Assembly: GCF_005876955.1 (NCBI RefSeq) | Contig: NZ_SSCL01000001.1 | Span: 62,001-126,000 of the forward strand | Direction of reading: 5' to 3' | Source: Sinomonas gamaensis | GTDB lineage: Bacteria > Actinomycetota > Actinomycetes > Actinomycetales > Micrococcaceae | Length of the DNA stretch: 64,000 bases | Part shown: piece after piece, positions 5,336 to 13,948 of the stretch | Layout: the number at the start of each line of letters is the position of its first letter | Position numbering within the stretch: the stretch's first letter is position 1 | Program-made: the position numbers and the translations under genes | The notes under the pieces: model-generated | What the model was told of the DNA's origin: nothing | Databases searched by the model: none | What the model saw: only the letters and a program-made list of their open reading frames with translations

Positions 5336-5339
<4 letters not shown>
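5315..5339. terminator. Short hairpin shared by convergent HIT and hrpA genes
   Basis: A 7-bp inverted repeat (CTGACGC / GCGTCAG) spans both stop codons of the convergent genes. There is no T-run, so at most it is a weak or factor-assisted bidirectional terminator. Confidence 0.3.
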
Positions 5340-9397
<4,058 letters not shown>

Positions 9398-9746
9398 GGC
9401 TGATCCAGTCTAGTTGGCTCCTCCAAATCCCTCGGCTTCTCCGCTGGCGCCCACTCGAGCCGCTCGGCCCGGCGCAGTCCAGAGGTCGGCCTCGACGTCT
9501 GTGTCGTGGAGATCGGTGACGGCTGATGTGCGAGATATGAGTCGTCCCATCCTTGTATTTTTACGAAGTGGATACTTCGGGCTGGATTGCGTGGACGAGG
9601 CTGCTAACTACCGGTGAAACCAGGAACAGCTTGGATTTCTGGTGTCACCTACTTGTATTTTCGACAAGTTGAATTTGACAGCACCCGCCGGATCACATCA
9701 CGCTCTATCTGAGCAAGCACCAGAGCGAATCTATGGGGGGACACGA
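9398..9746. other. Intergenic region between hrpA and the peptide operon
   Basis: 349 bases, clearly richer in A/T than the flanking core genes. It must hold the hrpA promoter (minus strand) and the promoter of the peptide operon (plus strand). A TTGACA hexamer is at 9675-9680 but no convincing -10 box lies 16-18 bases after it. A Gly-rich ribosome site (GGGGGG, 9735-9740) sits 6 bases before ATG 9747. An open frame at 9414-9617 lacks any protein-like character and is not called. Confidence 0.6.
9552..9669. promoter_or_regulatory. Paired operator-like motifs upstream of the peptide operon
   Basis: The 10-mer CTTGTATTTT occurs at 9552-9561 and again exactly 100 bases later at 9652-9661. The second copy is part of a perfect inverted repeat, ACTTGT-7 nt-ACAAGT (9651-9669). 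Next to the first copy is another perfect inverted repeat, CGAAGT-4 nt-ACTTCG (9564-9579). Position and symmetry suggest binding sites for a dimeric regulator of the operon; no regulator gene is present in the island, so this is inference. Confidence 0.4.
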
Positions 9747-10127
9747 ATGGTGTCAGCAACAAGAGCCTCTAATGCAGTCCGAACCAAGGCCATTGCCGCC
9801 TCTTTGGCCGCGGCCGTCCTTCTTTCGACGCCTCCTGCCGGCCGGCTATTTTCGGTGCAGGCAATCTCGCAAGCATCGATATCAGCCACCGGACAGAAGT
9901 TGGGGGAATTGGGCCTCCGGTCGATGACGACTCTTCCGCAACTCGGCGGCCCGGGACTACCCTCCGGATCGGATGGGGTAATCAAAGACGGGCAGAAGCG
10001 TATCAACGTGGGGCCTCTCCTCAACTGGATTTGGTCCAATGCGCGTTACCTCTGGAACTCAATAGTCAATGCCGTAAGGTCGGGGTGGTCGTCCTTCGTC
10101 GGCTGGTGGAACGGTCTGAACGGCTGA
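9747..10127 (+). CDS. Secreted Trp-rich cationic peptide precursor (bacteriocin-like)
   Basis: I do not recognise a named family. The 126-residue product has an Arg/Lys N-region and a hydrophobic core (residues about 15-35) typical of a signal peptide, a Gly/Pro/Ser-rich middle, a dibasic KR at 84-85 and a C-terminal segment (86-126) with Trp at 94, 96, 103, 114, 120 and 121, Arg at 100 and 111 and no acidic residue. That segment would form an amphipathic membrane-active helix. I chose ATG 9747 because GGGGGG lies 6 bases upstream; the frame is open back to a GTG at 9642, but that part looks non-coding. It heads an operon with a CPBP protease and an ABC exporter, the usual company of bacteriocins. 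A secreted signalling peptide is the main alternative. Confidence 0.7.
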   Translation: MVSATRASNAVRTKAIAASLAAAVLLSTPPAGRLFSVQAISQASISATGQKLGELGLRSMTTLPQLGGPGLPSGSDGVIKDGQKRINVGPLLNWIWSNARYLWNSIVNAVRSGWSSFVGWWNGLNG

Positions 10128-10211
10128 ATGCGCGGTGTTTTTAGCTGGTTCGGTGGCGGAACGCTCTGGGACATTTACCTTAGCCTCAGGCACTACTTCT
10201 TCGGATGGTGA
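10128..10211 (+). CDS. Second short aromatic peptide, 27 residues
   Basis: The ATG follows the stop codon of the preceding peptide gene with no spacer (TGA-ATG, same frame), and the frame closes at TGA 10209-10211, overlapping the next gene by 7 bases. The 27 residues include three Trp (7, 14, 27), four Phe (5, 8, 24, 25) and two Tyr (17, 23), a GGG at 9-11, and only Arg2, Asp15, Arg21 and His22 as charged or ionisable side chains. There is no leader. It could be the partner of a two-peptide bacteriocin, a leaderless peptide, or the read-through extension of the first peptide. Its exact fit between the two neighbours and similar aromatic bias argue that it is real. No ribosome site of its own is evident, so translational coupling is likely. 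Confidence 0.5.
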   Translation: MRGVFSWFGGGTLWDIYLSLRHYFFGW

Positions 10212-10945
10212 CAGCTTCGTTCGGCCGGGCAGCGATGATGAGCCAGCTGGCTAGACTCGTCGCCTTAGTTCTTGCGCTTCTCGGGGTGGTGGCCCTCATG
10301 GTCACTTCGCATGCTGTCGCCTCAGTCCTCGGGGCTTCCGAAGAGCGCGCGAACTCGGCTGCGCTCGCCGTCACTGCGATGATCACCACTGCGGTGCTGA
10401 GAATTGGTGGCATTTTTCCATCCCAATTGTTTGGCCACACACAATTTGTACGTCGACTGGGCATCGCTTCGGTCCTGGTGTCCCTCATTCTGGTGGCTGG
10501 ATCGATTTGGACAGATCTGGCGGAGGAGAATTTGCAAACTCTGTTATTGGTTCCTTCGGCGTTATTCGAAGAGCTGCTTTTTCGGGGCCTTCCGTTCCTG
10601 ATCCTTATTTGGGGCCGGAGGCTTCGGCGCCCCGTACTCGTCGCGGGCGTCGTTCTGACCTCGTCTGTCTTTGCACTGCGGCACCCCTCGCCGAACATCT
10701 CCGTCTTCGTCGACGCATTCGTTTTTTCTCTGCTGGCATTCGGCATGCTCGTCGCGACGCACTCCATCTGGCCGGCGATTGCCTTCCATATCGTGGCCAA
10801 CGTGACGGTTGCGACTTTTCCAGACGCTCGTCTCGGCTCCGAGGCAAGAATTTCGACGGTGATCTTTGACGCAGGGTTGGGTTTACTGATTCTTGCGATT
10901 CTCGCCCTGTGGCTCAGGAGGGCGAAACGGAAAGAGGTGTGCTGA
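10205..10945 (+). CDS. CPBP-family intramembrane glutamic protease (Abi/CAAX-like)
   Basis: Integral membrane protein of 246 residues with about seven hydrophobic segments. The three CPBP motifs are present: EELLFRG (motif 1), FALRH (motif 2) and HIVAN (motif 3), so the active site appears complete. Members of this family process prenylated proteins or, in bacteriocin loci, mature peptides or give self-immunity. Start ATG 10205 overlaps the end of the 27-residue peptide; ATG 10235 is an alternative. The stop overlaps the ATPase start (TGATG). A role in maturing or resisting the upstream peptides is inferred from the operon only. Confidence 0.8.
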   Translation: MVTASFGRAAMMSQLARLVALVLALLGVVALMVTSHAVASVLGASEERANSAALAVTAMITTAVLRIGGIFPSQLFGHTQFVRRLGIASVLVSLILVAGSIWTDLAEENLQTLLLVPSALFEELLFRGLPFLILIWGRRLRRPVLVAGVVLTSSVFALRHPSPNISVFVDAFVFSLLAFGMLVATHSIWPAIAFHIVANVTVATFPDARLGSEARISTVIFDAGLGLLILAILALWLRRAKRKEVC

Positions 10946-11883
10946 TGAAACTAGAGGTCGAAGACATCTCCAAGTCCTATGAGCGGATTCAAGCCTTGAG
11001 CCACGTGAGCTTCTCATGCGATGCGGGAACGATCATGGGCTATATCGGGCCCAATGGCTCGGGAAAATCCACAACTCTCAAGGTGATCGCCGGCCTTGTA
11101 CGCCCTGATGGGGGCCGTGTTCTTATTGATGGCGAGCCCTATCAGTCGCTCGAAAATCCTGGCCGGAAAGTTGGCTTTCTTCTGGACCCGTGGGCGCATC
11201 ATCCGGGAAGATCCGTGCGAGAGACGGTCAGGCTTGCGGCAATGATGATGCGTCTCCCTAAAAGTCGAGTGGACGCAGTGTTGACCGAAGTCGGCCTTGC
11301 ATCCGTTCCGGCGCGGAAGGTGGGCGTCCTCTCCCTCGGGATGCGTCAGCGCCTCAGCCTCGCCATCGCGCTCCTCGGAGAGCCCGGGGTTCTGGTTCTG
11401 GACGAACCGGCGAACGGCCTGGATGTCGAGGGGATGACGTGGCTCAAGAGGCTGCTGCGTTCGCTCGGGGACAATGGCACCGCAGTCGTCGTCTCAAGCC
11501 ATCTGCTGAACGAATTGGAGACCTACGTCGACAGAGCGGTGATCCTCGATCGCGGCCGTGTGGTGTCAGATCATATTGTGCGGCGCGGGGCACTGAGCGA
11601 ATGGACCTTTGTCAGCGGCCCTGATTTGGACGAGATCGAAGAGGTCCTTGTCGCTGAGGGATTCGAGCACCTTCGAGGGCGCGAGCGAGCCGCTGGTCCA
11701 GGTTTTCGGGTTCGCAGTACGGCCGGCGAAATTGGCGATGCAATGTGGTCGCGCCGGGTCAAAGTGAACCATCTCGGGCCAGCTGCAGCAGTGACGCTTG
11801 AGGCCCAATACGGCGCGGTCACGTCGCCGCAATTCAGGGCCGGTCGCGGTGAGCCCAACATCGGCGATGAGAAGGAAACATAA
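10945..11883 (+). CDS. ABC transporter ATPase of the peptide operon
   Basis: ATP-binding subunit of an ABC-2-type exporter, 312 residues. Walker A is GPNGSGKST, the signature LSLGMRQRLSLA, Walker B VLVLDEPANGLD, and the H-loop VSSHLL; the C-terminal 90 residues form the accessory domain common in CcmA-like drug and lantibiotic exporters. I chose ATG 10945, which overlaps the CPBP stop and has AGAGGTG upstream, over the GTG at 10909. The permease follows after one base. It probably exports or expels the aromatic peptides; resistance to another cationic compound is the alternative. Confidence 0.85.
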   Translation: MKLEVEDISKSYERIQALSHVSFSCDAGTIMGYIGPNGSGKSTTLKVIAGLVRPDGGRVLIDGEPYQSLENPGRKVGFLLDPWAHHPGRSVRETVRLAAMMMRLPKSRVDAVLTEVGLASVPARKVGVLSLGMRQRLSLAIALLGEPGVLVLDEPANGLDVEGMTWLKRLLRSLGDNGTAVVVSSHLLNELETYVDRAVILDRGRVVSDHIVRRGALSEWTFVSGPDLDEIEEVLVAEGFEHLRGRERAAGPGFRVRSTAGEIGDAMWSRRVKVNHLGPAAAVTLEAQYGAVTSPQFRAGRGEPNIGDEKET

Positions 11884-11884
11884 G

Positions 11885-12622
11885 ATGGCAGCCTTCCTTT
11901 CGGGACCTCTTGCCGTTGCCGTTCGGGTGGAGTCACGGAAGCTCGTGGACACCCGGAGTGCACGCTGCCTCCTCTTCGCGATGATTCTCATAGGCCTGAC
12001 GCTGATCGCACTCGCGGCGGGACTGTCTATCGAAAGAGGCGGCGTCTTGGATGTGCCCGTCCTCTTGATGGGTTTGGCTCTTCCAGGAGCCATCGTCGCG
12101 CCACTGCTTGCTATCCTTTCGGTGACTTCAGACTGGCAGTACAAGGACGTGATGACCTTCTACGCGCTGCAGCCGAGGCGGCTCGTGATCTTGGGCGCGA
12201 AGTACATCGCGGTCACACTTTTTGCGACGGCGGTTATGGCGGCCATCTGCCTCTTGGCGGTTCTTGTCGCGGTGGTCCTCGCGGGGTTCTCCAGAGTCGA
12301 TGTTGTTTACACCGGCCTCGGGCAGGGCCTCTGGTACGCCACCTGCGCCGTTCTGATTGGTTCGATCTCGGGCGCCGCGGTGGCTTCAGCTCTGATGTCA
12401 ACTCCCCTGGCCGTTGTGGTGGTCCTGATCCAGTCCACAGTCGCCGATCTCTTGATCGGGTTGGTCCCCAATATCCCGACGGCGTATGTCCGGTCGTCAA
12501 CGTTTTCCAATTTTCTCAGCGAAGGCGGCGAGACTCTTCCCGCCCTCAGTTCTGCGGTGATCTGGATTCTGGTTCCGGCAGCAGTTGGAGCATGGCGGCA
12601 CAGGCGTAGGGACGTGAACTAG
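11885..12622 (+). CDS. ABC-2-type permease of the peptide operon
   Basis: Membrane partner of the preceding ATPase, 245 residues with about six membrane segments. The motif around TSDWQYKDVMTFYALQPRR resembles the cytoplasmic coupling segment of ABC-2 permeases (TSEWRHGTxxxTxLxxPxR in homologues). ATG 11885 has AAGGAA about 8 bases upstream; longer frame extensions overlap the ATPase gene and are not needed. It ends 35 bases before the next small membrane protein gene. No sequence feature reveals the substrate. Confidence 0.78.
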   Translation: MAAFLSGPLAVAVRVESRKLVDTRSARCLLFAMILIGLTLIALAAGLSIERGGVLDVPVLLMGLALPGAIVAPLLAILSVTSDWQYKDVMTFYALQPRRLVILGAKYIAVTLFATAVMAAICLLAVLVAVVLAGFSRVDVVYTGLGQGLWYATCAVLIGSISGAAVASALMSTPLAVVVVLIQSTVADLLIGLVPNIPTAYVRSSTFSNFLSEGGETLPALSSAVIWILVPAAVGAWRHRRRDVN

Positions 12623-12657
12623 GCAGGAGGTTAGCTGGGACATGGGGAGAGGGTGCT

Positions 12658-13056
12658 ATGGATAGGACTCAAGCGAAGGAACTCGCCTCGGCACTGCGGA
12701 AACGCGGCGTTGACGAGTCTGCCCTTCCGGGCTTGCTTGCTAAGGCAGACGAGATTTCGGTGGAGCAAGGCGATCGCTTCCGGCCGAGCGTCTTCGCCGA
12801 GCAGGTCCCGCGATCAAAGCATCAGTCGAGGGGGAAGACGCTCGGGAACCTCGCGGCGTATTTCGCGATCCTTGCCCTTGGCGTGCCTCTCGCAGTCAAA
12901 CTGCTGACGGGGGCGTCCTTGGGGCTACCGGGCCAACTCGCTTATCTGGGGTGCGTGATCGTGATCCAGATCGCGCTGGTCCTCGCAGCCGTGAGCCTAG
13001 ACCGAAGGCTGCCCCCAGGATGGACCCCGGAAGGCGAGCTAAAGCGTAAGGCGTGA
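12658..13056 (+). CDS. Small membrane protein, possible immunity protein
   Basis: Not recognised. The 132 residues begin with a soluble, charged segment of about 60 residues (repeated short Ala/Leu helices and Lys/Arg) followed by two hydrophobic segments (about 62-85 and 92-112) and a basic tail. A GGAGAGGGTG ribosome site precedes ATG 12658. It is the last gene of the peptide operon and has the size and topology of many bacteriocin immunity or accessory proteins, but no motif proves this. Its stop overlaps the remnant protease frame, which lacks its own start signals. Confidence 0.6.
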   Translation: MDRTQAKELASALRKRGVDESALPGLLAKADEISVEQGDRFRPSVFAEQVPRSKHQSRGKTLGNLAAYFAILALGVPLAVKLLTGASLGLPGQLAYLGCVIVIQIALVLAAVSLDRRLPPGWTPEGELKRKA

Positions 13057-13292
13057 ACACAGCCACGCACCAGGTCGACGGCCTACCTGCAAGCGGACAA
13101 GGTGACTCGGGCGGCCCCGTTCTAGCGGGACGGAACGGGCACGCCTACGCCCAGGGATCATCACCGGGATGTGGAATTACTCGAGTCGATGCACCGGGTA
13201 CGGCGAACGACTGCGCAAGTTCGCACACCATCAAAGCGCCTCTTGAAGCGTTCTTCCAGGACAACCCCGGCTACGTGATCCTGGTCTGCTAG
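13053..13292 (+). pseudogene. C-terminal fragment of a trypsin-like (S1) serine protease
   Basis: About 79 codons remain. They contain GDSGGPV, the catalytic-serine motif of chymotrypsin-family proteases, followed by the usual GHAYAQGSS and a terminal helix-like segment. The catalytic His and Asp regions are absent: the preceding DNA codes for the unrelated membrane protein. The apparent GTG start at 13053 is a by-product of the junction. It is a decayed or recombined remnant and should have no protease activity. Secreted proteases of this kind are common in soil actinobacteria. Confidence 0.65.
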
Positions 13293-13299
13293 GTCCCGA

Positions 13300-13407
13300 T
13301 TATGCCGGCTTCACGGTGGCGATCGCCCAGATTGCTGCGGCGATGAACACCAGGATCACGGCGATGATCAGCCAGCCGAACAGTCGGTTCCCCAGTCCCG
13401 GTTTCAT
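13300..13407 (-). CDS. 35-residue single-span membrane peptide
   Basis: Minus-strand frame from ATG 13405-13407 to TAA 13300-13302. The product has a basic N-terminus (Lys2, Arg8), one long hydrophobic helix (residues 9-30) rich in Ile, Val, Ala and Trp, and a short basic end. Third codon positions are mostly G or C, as expected for a real gene here. The start region is tandemly duplicated, so ATGAAA and an upstream TATAGC box occur twice. The function is unknown; type I toxins and small membrane modulators look like this. It could also be the start of a truncated larger gene. Confidence 0.4.
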   Translation of the reverse strand: MKPGLGNRLFGWLIIAVILVFIAAAIWAIATVKPA

Positions 13408-13447
13408 GGTCGACAGGCTATAAATTTCATGGTCGACAGGCTATAAA
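13402..13447. repeat. Perfect 23-bp tandem duplication
   Basis: Copies at 13402-13424 and 13425-13447 are identical and adjacent. Each contains the sequence GTCGACAGGCTATAAA. On the minus strand each copy carries a TATAGC box and an ATGAAA, so the putative promoter and start of the 35-residue peptide are doubled. Confidence 0.95.
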
Positions 13448-13739
13448 GCGGTATGACCGGGAGGGAATGAACCGGTGCGCTCGGGCGCCACCCACGGGCA
13501 CGGCGGGCTCGGCACTCCGACCGGCACGCCGACGCAATCGGTCATGTAGCTGACGCCGCGGGAAGGAGATCAGGCCCCCACCGGTCAGAGCCTGGCTAGG
13601 GGCCGGCCGCAATCGCCCGCGGGGCTGAAGGCCGAGAACGAGGGCGAACCGCTGGGGTGGAAGAGTTTCGACAACAACGCCTCCACGATGGTCGCCTACG
13701 ACACCGCACCGAACACCCGCCCTCGAGCAAGGCACAGGC
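13448..13739. other. Degenerate region with no intact gene
   Basis: About 290 bases between the small peptide and the transposase tail. Short open segments in different frames (for example one encoding GWKSFDNNASTMVAYDT near 13655-13705) look like fragments of lost genes joined by small deletions, but none is recognised. No RNA gene or promoter is evident. Confidence 0.5.
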
Positions 13740-13850
13740 GAGATCCTCGCCGAATTCGCCATCGACCCTGCCAAGGGCTACCAGCCGAAAAAGAAAAACA
13801 CCCCCGATCCGAAGACCGGGGGTGTCGGCGATGTTTCGAGACATCTGTAG
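13740..13850 (+). pseudogene. C-terminal remnant of an IS481-like transposase
   Basis: The frame ending at TAG 13848-13850 reads GEILAEFAIDPAKGYQPKKK, which matches the usual end of IS481-family transposases (GELLRELTLDPTRDYQP-like). Everything upstream, including the DDE catalytic core, is missing. It marks an insertion sequence that has been mostly deleted. An imperfect 14-bp inverted repeat (13832-13866) overlaps the stop and may be an element end or a hairpin. Family assignment rests on about 20 residues. Confidence 0.5.
13787..13825 (-). terminator. Rho-independent terminator downstream of tRNA-Arg
   Basis: A 9-bp perfect stem (ACACCCCCG / CGGGGGTGT) with a 10-base loop is followed on the minus strand by TTTTTCTTTTT. 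Orientation and position fit termination of the tRNA-Arg transcript. Confidence 0.8.
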
Positions 13851-13866
13851 CCGATGTCCCGAAACA
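13832..13866. repeat. Imperfect 14-bp inverted repeat
   Basis: TGTTTCGAGACATC (13832-13845) pairs with GATGTCCCGAAACA (13853-13866) with a single mismatch and a 7-base loop. It lies between the transposase remnant and the tRNA 3' end, so it may be a residual insertion-sequence end. Confidence 0.7.
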
Positions 13867-13872
13867 CCACAG

Positions 13873-13948
13873 TGGTGCCCTCGATAGGATTCGAACCTAC
13901 GGCCTTCTGCTCCGGAGGCAGACGCTCTATCCCCTGAGCTACGAGGGC
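13873..13948 (-). tRNA. tRNA-Arg (anticodon CCG)
   Basis: The 76-nt minus-strand sequence folds as a canonical tRNA: acceptor stem GCCCTCG/CGAGGGC, D-arm with AGCTCAGGGGATAGAGC, anticodon stem TCTGC/GCAGA around loop CTCCGGA (anticodon CCG, reading CGG), T-arm with GGTTCGAATCC, and an encoded 3' CCA. Its 3' end faces the accessory island, which is the usual polarity for tRNA integration sites. Confidence 0.97.

What the first reader, a model, noticed from the sequence alone, without database searches (positions are those of the whole stretch)
9747..13056. Candidate undescribed bacteriocin-like operon on a low-GC island
Seen in sequence: a signal-bearing peptide whose last 41 residues contain six Trp, two Arg and no acid; a second short aromatic peptide; a CPBP membrane protease with all three motifs; an ABC-2 ATPase and permease; a small membrane protein. 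All run in one direction with 0-base, overlapping or very short junctions. Established knowledge: CPBP proteases and ABC exporters accompany bacteriocins for processing, export and immunity. Inference: the locus makes and resists a membrane-active peptide. I could not match the peptide to lantibiotics, lactococcin 972, linocins or circular bacteriocins.
Basis: partly seen in the sequence, partly recalled or inferred. Interest (0 to 1): 0.85.

Follow-up and report, generated by a model that had tools for sequence, protein, structure and literature searches.

The report
Broken bacteriocin-like gene with kept protection
A soil bacterium carries a small, laterally moved gene island that in its relatives encodes one tryptophan-rich, apparently secreted peptide with likely protection genes, but here a stop signal cuts the peptide in two while the other genes stay intact.

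Summary
The six frames exist at those coordinates on a low-GC island (59.9% versus 68.7%). But the "second short peptide" is not a separate gene: in five other genomes both pieces form one precursor of 154-158 residues. The window (genus Sinomonas) has an in-frame TGA where relatives have Trp, followed at once by ATG. The conserved C-terminal ~72 residues (9-11 Trp, no Cys) are the most constrained part of the island (dN/dS 0.08 against S. humi). One Sinomonas lost peptide and most of CPBP but keeps ABC and small membrane protein; another keeps only the small protein. Silent divergence shows exchange between species. Best reading: an undescribed family of bacteriocin-like peptides with ABC immunity; this strain probably lost killing and kept protection. 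Pfam, NCBIfam and PDB searches gave no convincing relative. Export, cleavage, killing and immunity are inferred, not shown.

The parts
9651..9669 (+). inverted repeat upstream of the operon (6-bp arms, 7-bp spacer in the window), possible operator
   Evidence: its core TTGT-N7-ACAA is present in 4 of the 8 upstream regions scanned (window, S. humi, S. susongensis, G010) and absent from the other 4 (ASV322, Glutamicibacter, G372, G640); the full 6-bp arms are in the window only; some 6-bp inverted repeat arises in 506/1000 shuffles, so only the conservation counts
9747..10127 (+). first part of the peptide precursor: signal-like N-terminus, variable pro-segment, first 46 residues of the conserved C-terminal region; ends at an in-frame TGA
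9987..10208 (+). conserved C-terminal (presumed mature) region, from two residues before QKR to the end, spanning the TGA at 10125-10127
   Evidence: dN/dS 0.08 against S. humi, upstream part 0.43 (73 and 80 codons, no significance test); 26 of 74 columns invariant in 4 sequences, one of them only because the window TGA was read as Trp; four helices predicted at moderate confidence
10128..10211 (+). last 27 residues of the same precursor, now opening with ATG directly after the stop; its own stop overlaps the start of the CPBP gene
10205..10945 (+). CPBP (Rce1-like) intramembrane protease; start ATG 10205 or GTG 10208
   Evidence: PF02517 E 6.7e-12; 78% identical in S. humi
10945..11883 (+). 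ABC transporter ATPase; best NCBIfam model is lantibiotic-protection TIGR03740, below its cut-off
11885..12622 (+). ABC-2-like permease (by position and six hydrophobic stretches)
   Evidence: no Pfam match near cut-off; 4 of 15 genomes of the genus, window included, carry it
12658..13056 (+). small membrane protein: three short helices plus two long hydrophobic helices in the model, HAAS-like
   Evidence: its family aligns at hhalign probability 99.1 to a PadR-adjacent protein of G372 that scores 26.9 bits against HAAS (cut-off 27.0); the window protein itself has no HAAS match; model of moderate confidence
13068..13872 (.). stretch between island and tRNA-Arg, without a DNA match in the S. 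humi or S. susongensis stretches

Best explanation
The island is a laterally exchanged bacteriocin-like locus of an undescribed family. In intact relatives one precursor of 154-158 residues is made: an N-terminal signal-like segment (probably Sec export), a variable Ser/Ala-rich pro-segment, and a conserved C-terminal region of about 72 residues that starts at Gln-Lys-Arg, has no Cys, carries 9-11 Trp and is predicted as four helices. Inferred steps: the pro-segment is removed near QKR, by the translationally coupled CPBP protease or by another protease, and the released peptide disturbs membranes of competitors. The ABC ATPase-permease pair removes the peptide from the producer's membrane (immunity), and the HAAS-like small membrane protein reports or buffers membrane stress, with a PadR regulator in some relatives. 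In this window the gene is interrupted inside the conserved region by TGA-ATG, so the strain probably makes at most fragments and keeps the protection genes. Shown: anatomy, conservation, interruption, gene loss in relatives, lateral exchange. Inferred: export route, cleavage, killing, immunity.
For: One frame in five relatives: S. humi, Sinomonas sp. ASV322, Glutamicibacter protophormiae, G. soli and unnamed G372. The aligned DNA (window and three relatives) shows the stop at a Trp codon of the relatives, and S. susongensis keeps sense codons there. The gene set occurs in three orders: peptide-CPBP-ATPase-permease-small protein; peptide-CPBP-PadR-small protein-ATPase-permease; peptide-CPBP-ATPase-permease-PadR-small protein. 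A remote relative, G640, has peptide-ATPase-permease candidate-CPBP. Selection: between window and S. humi dN/dS is 0.08 for the C-terminal region, 0.43 upstream of it, 0.42 for CPBP; for ATPase, permease and small protein it is 0.15-0.27 over all pairs of window, S. humi and S. susongensis. Decay: S. susongensis has lost most of the peptide and of CPBP but keeps ATPase, permease and small protein at 86-91% identity; G010 keeps an intact small-protein frame, 76% identical, plus scraps. Silent divergence of ATPase, permease and small protein is 0.05-0.09 between S. humi and S. susongensis, and island genes are 0.19-0.45 between the window and those two, against 0.64-0.93 for the adjacent HrpA-like gene. 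Operon GC is below that of its flanks in 6 of 6 copies compared.
Against: No homologue with tested activity was found. No Pfam, NCBIfam or PDB sequence match supports a bacteriocin family, and Foldseek returned nothing for the peptide model, whose confidence is only moderate (pLDDT 69.9). Three remote homologues (G023, G295, G663) had no relative of the island's CPBP, permease or small protein in the stretches read (tblastn; the only ATPase match, in G023, is to a separate transporter cluster), so the peptide may exist without this partner set; but two of the three lie within about 530 bases of a contig end. The HAAS link rests on one of four small proteins scanned, and the Glutamicibacter one is related to the window's only weakly. 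The retained small protein could be a regulator or a not-yet-decayed remnant. Only one genome each of S. susongensis and G010 was seen. The interruption rests on one assembly; no reads were available.
Confidence: 0.62

Rival explanations
1. The split is functional: stop and start created a two-peptide system, the first frame giving an exported ~46-residue Trp-rich peptide and the second a 27-residue aromatic peptide made by translational restart.
For: The stop is followed directly by ATG, and the restart frame ends on the CPBP start, keeping translational coupling. Both halves show few amino-acid changes against S. humi: dN 0.009 and 0.056.
Against: The second piece has no signal-like start; none of the five intact relatives is split; the low dN may reflect time before the split; the codon after the stop was already a possible start (GTG) in S. 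susongensis, so the new ATG is less of a coincidence. The S. susongensis copy is plainly dead.
Confidence: 0.12
2. The peptide is a signalling or kin-directed stress factor, like the cannibalism peptides of Bacillus, rather than a weapon against other species; the HAAS-like protein is its sensor.
For: PadR neighbours in Glutamicibacter and G372; HAAS-PadR pairs are proposed membrane-stress sensors (passages of PMC11237479); the Skf cluster also joins a precursor, a putative protease and SkfE/SkfF (passage of PMC8172795).
Against: No PadR frame was seen in the island of the window, S. humi or ASV322. Patchy occurrence (permease in 4 of 15 genomes of the genus) and exchange between species fit a weapon better than a developmental signal.
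Confidence: 0.14
3. The locus is an envelope-stress or antibiotic-efflux cassette (ABC plus CPBP plus HAAS-like protein), and the peptide is an accessory, not a toxin.
For: The ATPase's best NCBIfam model is a peptide-antibiotic protection transporter (TIGR03740, 175.3 bits against cut-off 309.75); the other genes survive without the peptide.
Against: The peptide's C-terminal region is the most constrained part, and the peptide precedes the other genes in all five intact copies.
Confidence: 0.08
4. The peptide is an aureocin A53/lacticin Q-type bacteriocin that acquired a leader.
For: Local match INVGPLLNWIW / LNVGPTLEWVW to aureocin A53: score 54 reached by 1 (window) and 3 (S. humi) of 2000 shuffles; similar Trp-rich helical make-up.
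Against: The match fades in ASV322 (44/2000) and vanishes in Glutamicibacter (980/2000); lacticin Q (166-992/2000) and epidermicin (53-1031/2000) give no such signal. Profile comparison gives probability 31.5 to the three-member aureocin set and 1.4 to lacticin Q alone, against 96.3 for the remote actinobacterial group. No PF11758 match in the scans listing E up to 1 (window) or 5 (relatives).
Confidence: 0.04

Closest known systems
Aureocin A53-like leaderless bacteriocins (Pfam PF11758), including those of Actinomycetota (PMC11580447: outline with abstract, passages, Results part 1 of 2 and genome-mining section seen)
   Same: Trp-rich, cationic helical peptide; several clusters with dedicated ABC genes; some in Actinomycetota
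   Different: Leaderless, mean length 50 residues; here an ~80-residue N-terminal segment precedes ~72 conserved residues; no PF11758 match; CPBP protease and HAAS-like protein here, PH-domain proteins in many of theirs. That survey cut its MGnify set at 100 residues, so precursors like these would drop out of that part.
Lactococcin 972 (passages of PMC4055356)
   Same: A structural gene and two genes that could encode an ABC transporter involved in immunity
   Different: No family match; lactococcin 972 binds lipid II; no CPBP or HAAS partner named in the passages seen
Sporulation killing factor Skf of Bacillus subtilis (one passage of PMC8172795)
   Same: Precursor, putative protease SkfC, SkfE/SkfF for export/resistance
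   Different: Skf is a radical-SAM-modified, disulfide-bonded, head-to-tail cyclic 26-mer; here no Cys in the conserved region and no radical-SAM match among the island proteins scanned
CPBP/CAAX proteases of bacteriocin clusters (SilX; abstract and passages of PMC9298176)
   Same: Rce1-like protease with EExxxR and FxxxH near a bacteriocin gene
   Different: SilX seems to act on a signal peptide and not in immunity, others are reported to confer immunity or to process; role here unknown, but most of it is lost together with the peptide in S. susongensis
HAAS-PadR sensor pairs (passages of PMC11237479)
   Same: In G372 and Glutamicibacter the small membrane protein directly follows a PadR gene; three short helices before the membrane helices in the model
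   Different: Only the G372 protein reaches (almost) the HAAS cut-off; in Sinomonas no PadR was seen in the island, although the paper says HAAS always occurs with PadR

Membership tests
Aureocin A53-like leaderless bacteriocins | no leader: the translated peptide is the mature peptide | tested here: not met
   all 5 intact relatives carry an N-terminal signal-like and pro-segment before the conserved region; that it is removed is inferred
Aureocin A53-like leaderless bacteriocins | match to Pfam PF11758 | tested here: not met
   none listed for the window peptide at E up to 1 or for eight relatives at E up to 5; HMMER's filters drop most weak matches. The genome search with PF11758 rang in 0 of 295 and in 0 of 14 controls and shows nothing
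Aureocin A53-like leaderless bacteriocins | sequence homology | tested here: inconclusive
   hhalign probability 31.5 and 1.4 to lacticin Q alone; local score to aureocin A53 rare in shuffles for 2 of 4 peptides
Any bacteriocin family in Pfam or NCBIfam (lactococcin 972 and others) | match above the curated cut-off | tested here: not met
   9 precursors scanned: no match reached a cut-off; nearest in kind was PF08102, a scorpion antimicrobial peptide, E 0.51, 11.1 bits against 25, for one relative
Sactipeptides such as Skf | Cys in the core peptide and a radical-SAM partner | tested here: not met
   no Cys in the conserved region of the four peptides counted; no radical-SAM match among the seven window proteins scanned
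CPBP (Rce1-like) proteases | PF02517 above cut-off and catalytic motifs | tested here: met
   46 bits against 22.4; motifs read in the sequence
Lantibiotic-protection ABC ATPases (TIGR03740) | score above cut-off | tested here: not met
   175.3 bits against 309.75
HAAS proteins | match to PF22564 | tested here: inconclusive
   1 of 4 small proteins scanned: G372 26.9 bits against 27.0; window, ASV322 and Glutamicibacter none at E up to 5. Links: window family to G372 hhalign 99.1, Glutamicibacter to G372 BLASTP 33% E 1e-15, window to Glutamicibacter weak, E 0.004
HAAS proteins | PadR gene beside it | tested here: not met
   PadR present in the Glutamicibacter and G372 operons; no such frame seen in the island of window, S. 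humi or ASV322
Bacteriocin (functional definition) | kills other bacteria | not testable with these tools
   needs an assay

The most novel reading that the evidence does not exclude
A one-peptide bacteriocin caught in the act of becoming a two-peptide one: a tandem change turned a Trp codon and its neighbour into stop-start inside the mature region, giving two coupled frames whose products act together, while coupling to the next gene is kept.
Probability: 0.1. Interest if true: 0.8.

Novelty: new variant of a known kind. Interest (0 to 1): 0.52.

Why it matters
It points to an undescribed family of leader-bearing, Trp-rich, Cys-free bacteriocin-like peptides in Micrococcaceae and neighbouring families that the family libraries searched do not name, and that a published leaderless search would partly miss through its 100-residue cut on MGnify. 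The Sinomonas copies form a decay series at one chromosomal site (intact, interrupted, peptide and protease deleted, only the small membrane protein left), a natural comparison for asking which genes carry immunity and how a population passes from producer to resistant non-producer.

Tried and rejected
Two independent peptide genes: rejected, because relatives have one frame. A different genetic code (TGA as Trp): rejected, because the CPBP and small-protein genes of the same island end in TGA. Phage or plasmid origin: no relative of the CPBP protein in viral contigs, none of the peptide in viral contigs or plasmids; the weak phage matches are mostly tape-measure repeats, two PHROG matches being of unknown function. 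A defence system: PADLOC matched only the generic ATPase. PDB folds: nothing for the peptide model; for the small protein 17 matches, none under E 0.001. Profile of the remote group alone: 0 of 218 genomes, uninformative. Phylum-wide: 7 of 396, of which one is the window and six match only profile positions 2-83 of 152, the leader part, and were set aside. Also set aside after the counts: G176 (frame of over 900 residues, repetitive) and G474 (profile positions 5-59 only). In one search the tally of 96 of 148 at E up to 1 is mostly chance: six genomes, G000 included, had a match below 1e-10, and the next genome's best was 0.0021. Promoter and terminator scans gave nothing usable. Ten paper searches for a described system (capped listings with starts of abstracts seen) listed no paper that I recognised as describing it; most subscription papers are not held.


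Full report
What is there. The window holds a run of plus-strand frames from 9747 to 13056 on an island with 59.9% GC against 68.7% for the rest of the window. The frames are a 126-residue peptide, a 27-residue frame, a CPBP protease (PF02517, E 6.7e-12), an ABC ATPase (PF00005, E 6.2e-29), a permease-like protein with six hydrophobic stretches and no Pfam match near cut-off, and a small protein with two hydrophobic stretches. The island lies between a HrpA-like helicase gene (5336-9397, minus strand; name from recall) and tRNA-Arg(ccg) at 13873-13948.

One peptide gene, not two. A search of 148 relatives found clear peptide homologues in the same genus and family. In S. humi (G006), Sinomonas sp. 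ASV322 (G008), Glutamicibacter protophormiae (G036), G. soli (G063) and unnamed G372, the two pieces are one frame of 154-158 residues (names by matching contig lengths). The two Glutamicibacter peptides read the same, so these are four distinct sequences. In the DNA alignment of window, S. humi, ASV322 and Glutamicibacter, the window has TGA then ATG where the other three have a Trp codon followed by a Val or Ile codon; S. susongensis (G007), otherwise decayed, also keeps sense codons there. The second 'peptide' is therefore the C-terminus of the first. Its frame ends on the CPBP start, so translational coupling to the next gene may survive.

Anatomy and selection. N-terminus: basic residues, then a short hydrophobic run, then a variable Ser/Ala-rich stretch; I read this as signal plus pro-segment, and no signal-peptide predictor was available. 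From Gln-Lys-Arg onward the region is conserved: 26 of 74 columns are invariant among four sequences, one of these (the Trp at the stop) only because the window's TGA was read as Trp. Between window and S. humi dN/dS is 0.08 there and 0.43 upstream; CPBP 0.42, ATPase 0.22, permease 0.26, small protein 0.15 (Nei-Gojobori counts, no significance test). The three intact conserved regions counted have 9-11 Trp, no Cys and pI of 10.0-11.3. AlphaFold gives four helices at moderate confidence (pLDDT 69.9, pTM 0.51). Two of the four helices are more amphipathic than most shuffles (32 and 25 of 2000 reach the value), the other two are not (541 and 1061 of 2000).

The gene set. Peptide, CPBP, ATPase and permease recur in all five intact copies with sequence similarity. 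A small membrane protein is present in all five, but in Glutamicibacter it was recognised by position: a direct comparison with the window protein is weak (25%, E 0.004), while it resembles that of G372 (33%, E 1e-15). Glutamicibacter and G372 add a PadR regulator directly before the small protein (PF03551, E 1.8e-15 and 8e-18). Of four small proteins scanned, only that of G372 matches HAAS, at 26.9 bits against a cut-off of 27.0; the window's small-protein family aligns to it over its length at hhalign probability 99.1. The model of the window protein (pLDDT 68.5) shows three short helices and two long ones, fitting the published three-helix HAAS core plus membrane helices (passages of PMC11237479); Foldseek gave no significant match. 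A more remote relative in another family of the order (G640) has the peptide, an ABC ATPase, a permease candidate without Pfam match, and a CPBP protease; its mature part matches at probability 95.2. Three further remote homologues (G023, G295, G663), probability 96.3 as a group, showed no relative of the island's CPBP, permease or small protein in the stretches read; G023 lies near a PadR gene and a separate ABC cluster; G023 and G295 lie close to a contig end.

Distribution. The profile matched 10 of 395 genomes of the family: the window, five intact copies, the decayed S. susongensis copy, two remote homologues (G023, G295) and one probably false (G176). It matched 5 of 297 of the order, one (G474) leader-only, and 7 of 396 of the phylum, of which only the window is a real match. 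The permease occurs in 4 of 15 genomes of the genus, window included. So the locus is rare and patchy.

Exchange and decay at one site. The helicase neighbour is present in all 15 genomes of the genus. I compared the site in the other 14 with the window. The island lies there in S. humi and S. susongensis, and scraps lie there in G010. In G004, G005, G011 and G013 helicase and tRNA-Arg lie within roughly 60-160 bases of each other with no island. In G001, G009 and G008 another gene of 224-236 residues fills the gap; the ASV322 (G008) island lies on another contig. In G002, G003, G012 and G014 neither island nor tRNA-Arg was found in the 7 kb read. In S. susongensis two deletions remove most of the peptide and of the CPBP gene, while ATPase, permease and small protein remain at 86-91% identity. 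In G010 only the small protein remains intact (76% identical; dN/dS 0.19-0.26 in three comparisons). Silent divergence of ATPase, permease and small protein is 0.05-0.09 between S. humi and S. susongensis, against 0.635 for the helicase; for island genes between the window and those two species it is 0.19-0.45 against 0.70-0.93. The island has therefore most likely been exchanged between species well after they split. Toxin-first loss with protection kept is what one expects of a bacteriocin locus, but the number of events is small (three disrupted copies in one genus).

What it works like. ABC genes next to a bacteriocin gene are reported as likely immunity factors (lactococcin 972; passages of PMC4055356), CPBP proteases in bacteriocin clusters as immunity, processing or signalling factors (abstract and passages of PMC9298176), and Skf combines precursor, putative protease and SkfE/SkfF for export/resistance (passage of PMC8172795). 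The ATPase's best NCBIfam model is the lantibiotic-protection one, though below its cut-off. By analogy I propose export, removal of the pro-segment near QKR, membrane action, and ABC-based immunity. None of these four steps is shown.

What it is not. No Pfam or NCBIfam match reaches a cut-off for any of nine precursors scanned, and no PDB sequence matches convincingly: the best, E 0.028, is to two entries named a GDSL lipolytic enzyme. The tempting match to aureocin A53 is local, fades across the family, is not seen with lacticin Q or epidermicin, and is weak at profile level; leaderlessness, the defining feature, is not met.

This strain. The TGA lies after 46 of the 74 conserved residues counted from two before QKR. 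Mature half 1 shows 4 silent and 1 replacement change against S. humi, half 2 shows 8.5 and 3.5; both look constrained, which could be old selection or continued use. I rate loss of production as most likely, and a two-peptide reading as the boldest one not excluded.

Noticed in passing
window 13053-13292: Frame overlapping the stop of the small-protein gene reads GDSGGPV like the C-terminus of a trypsin-like protease (PF00089 E 0.083, below cut-off), probably a fragment; no match better than E 0.58 in the six loci of other genomes searched.
   Followed up: partly
window 13402-13447: An exact 23-base unit occurs twice in tandem just downstream of the island.
   Followed up: partly
site between the helicase gene and tRNA-Arg; L090, L091, L101: The site is variable: three genomes of the genus carry a gene of 224-236 residues there instead (looks DJ-1/PfpI-like from recall), four have almost nothing.
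   Followed up: partly
window 9987-10208: Silent divergence against S. humi differs between the two halves of the conserved region (0.14 before the stop, 0.91 after); few sites, possibly a recombination boundary.
   Followed up: no
L053, L054, L056: Remote homologues (P0013, P0014, P0015) with signal-like N-termini and a shared G-R-x-x-F-V-x-W-W core, without relatives of the island's CPBP, permease or small protein in the stretches read.
   Followed up: partly
L052 (opposite strand), downstream of the operon: In G372 the operon is followed directly by a long frame resembling an IS30-type transposase (label from recall), which would fit mobility.
   Followed up: no
conserved peptide region: Weak matches to Trp-rich repeats of phage tape-measure proteins and to a Trp-rich amphipathic segment of a viral envelope protein tail look like convergence of amphipathic helices.
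   Followed up: partly
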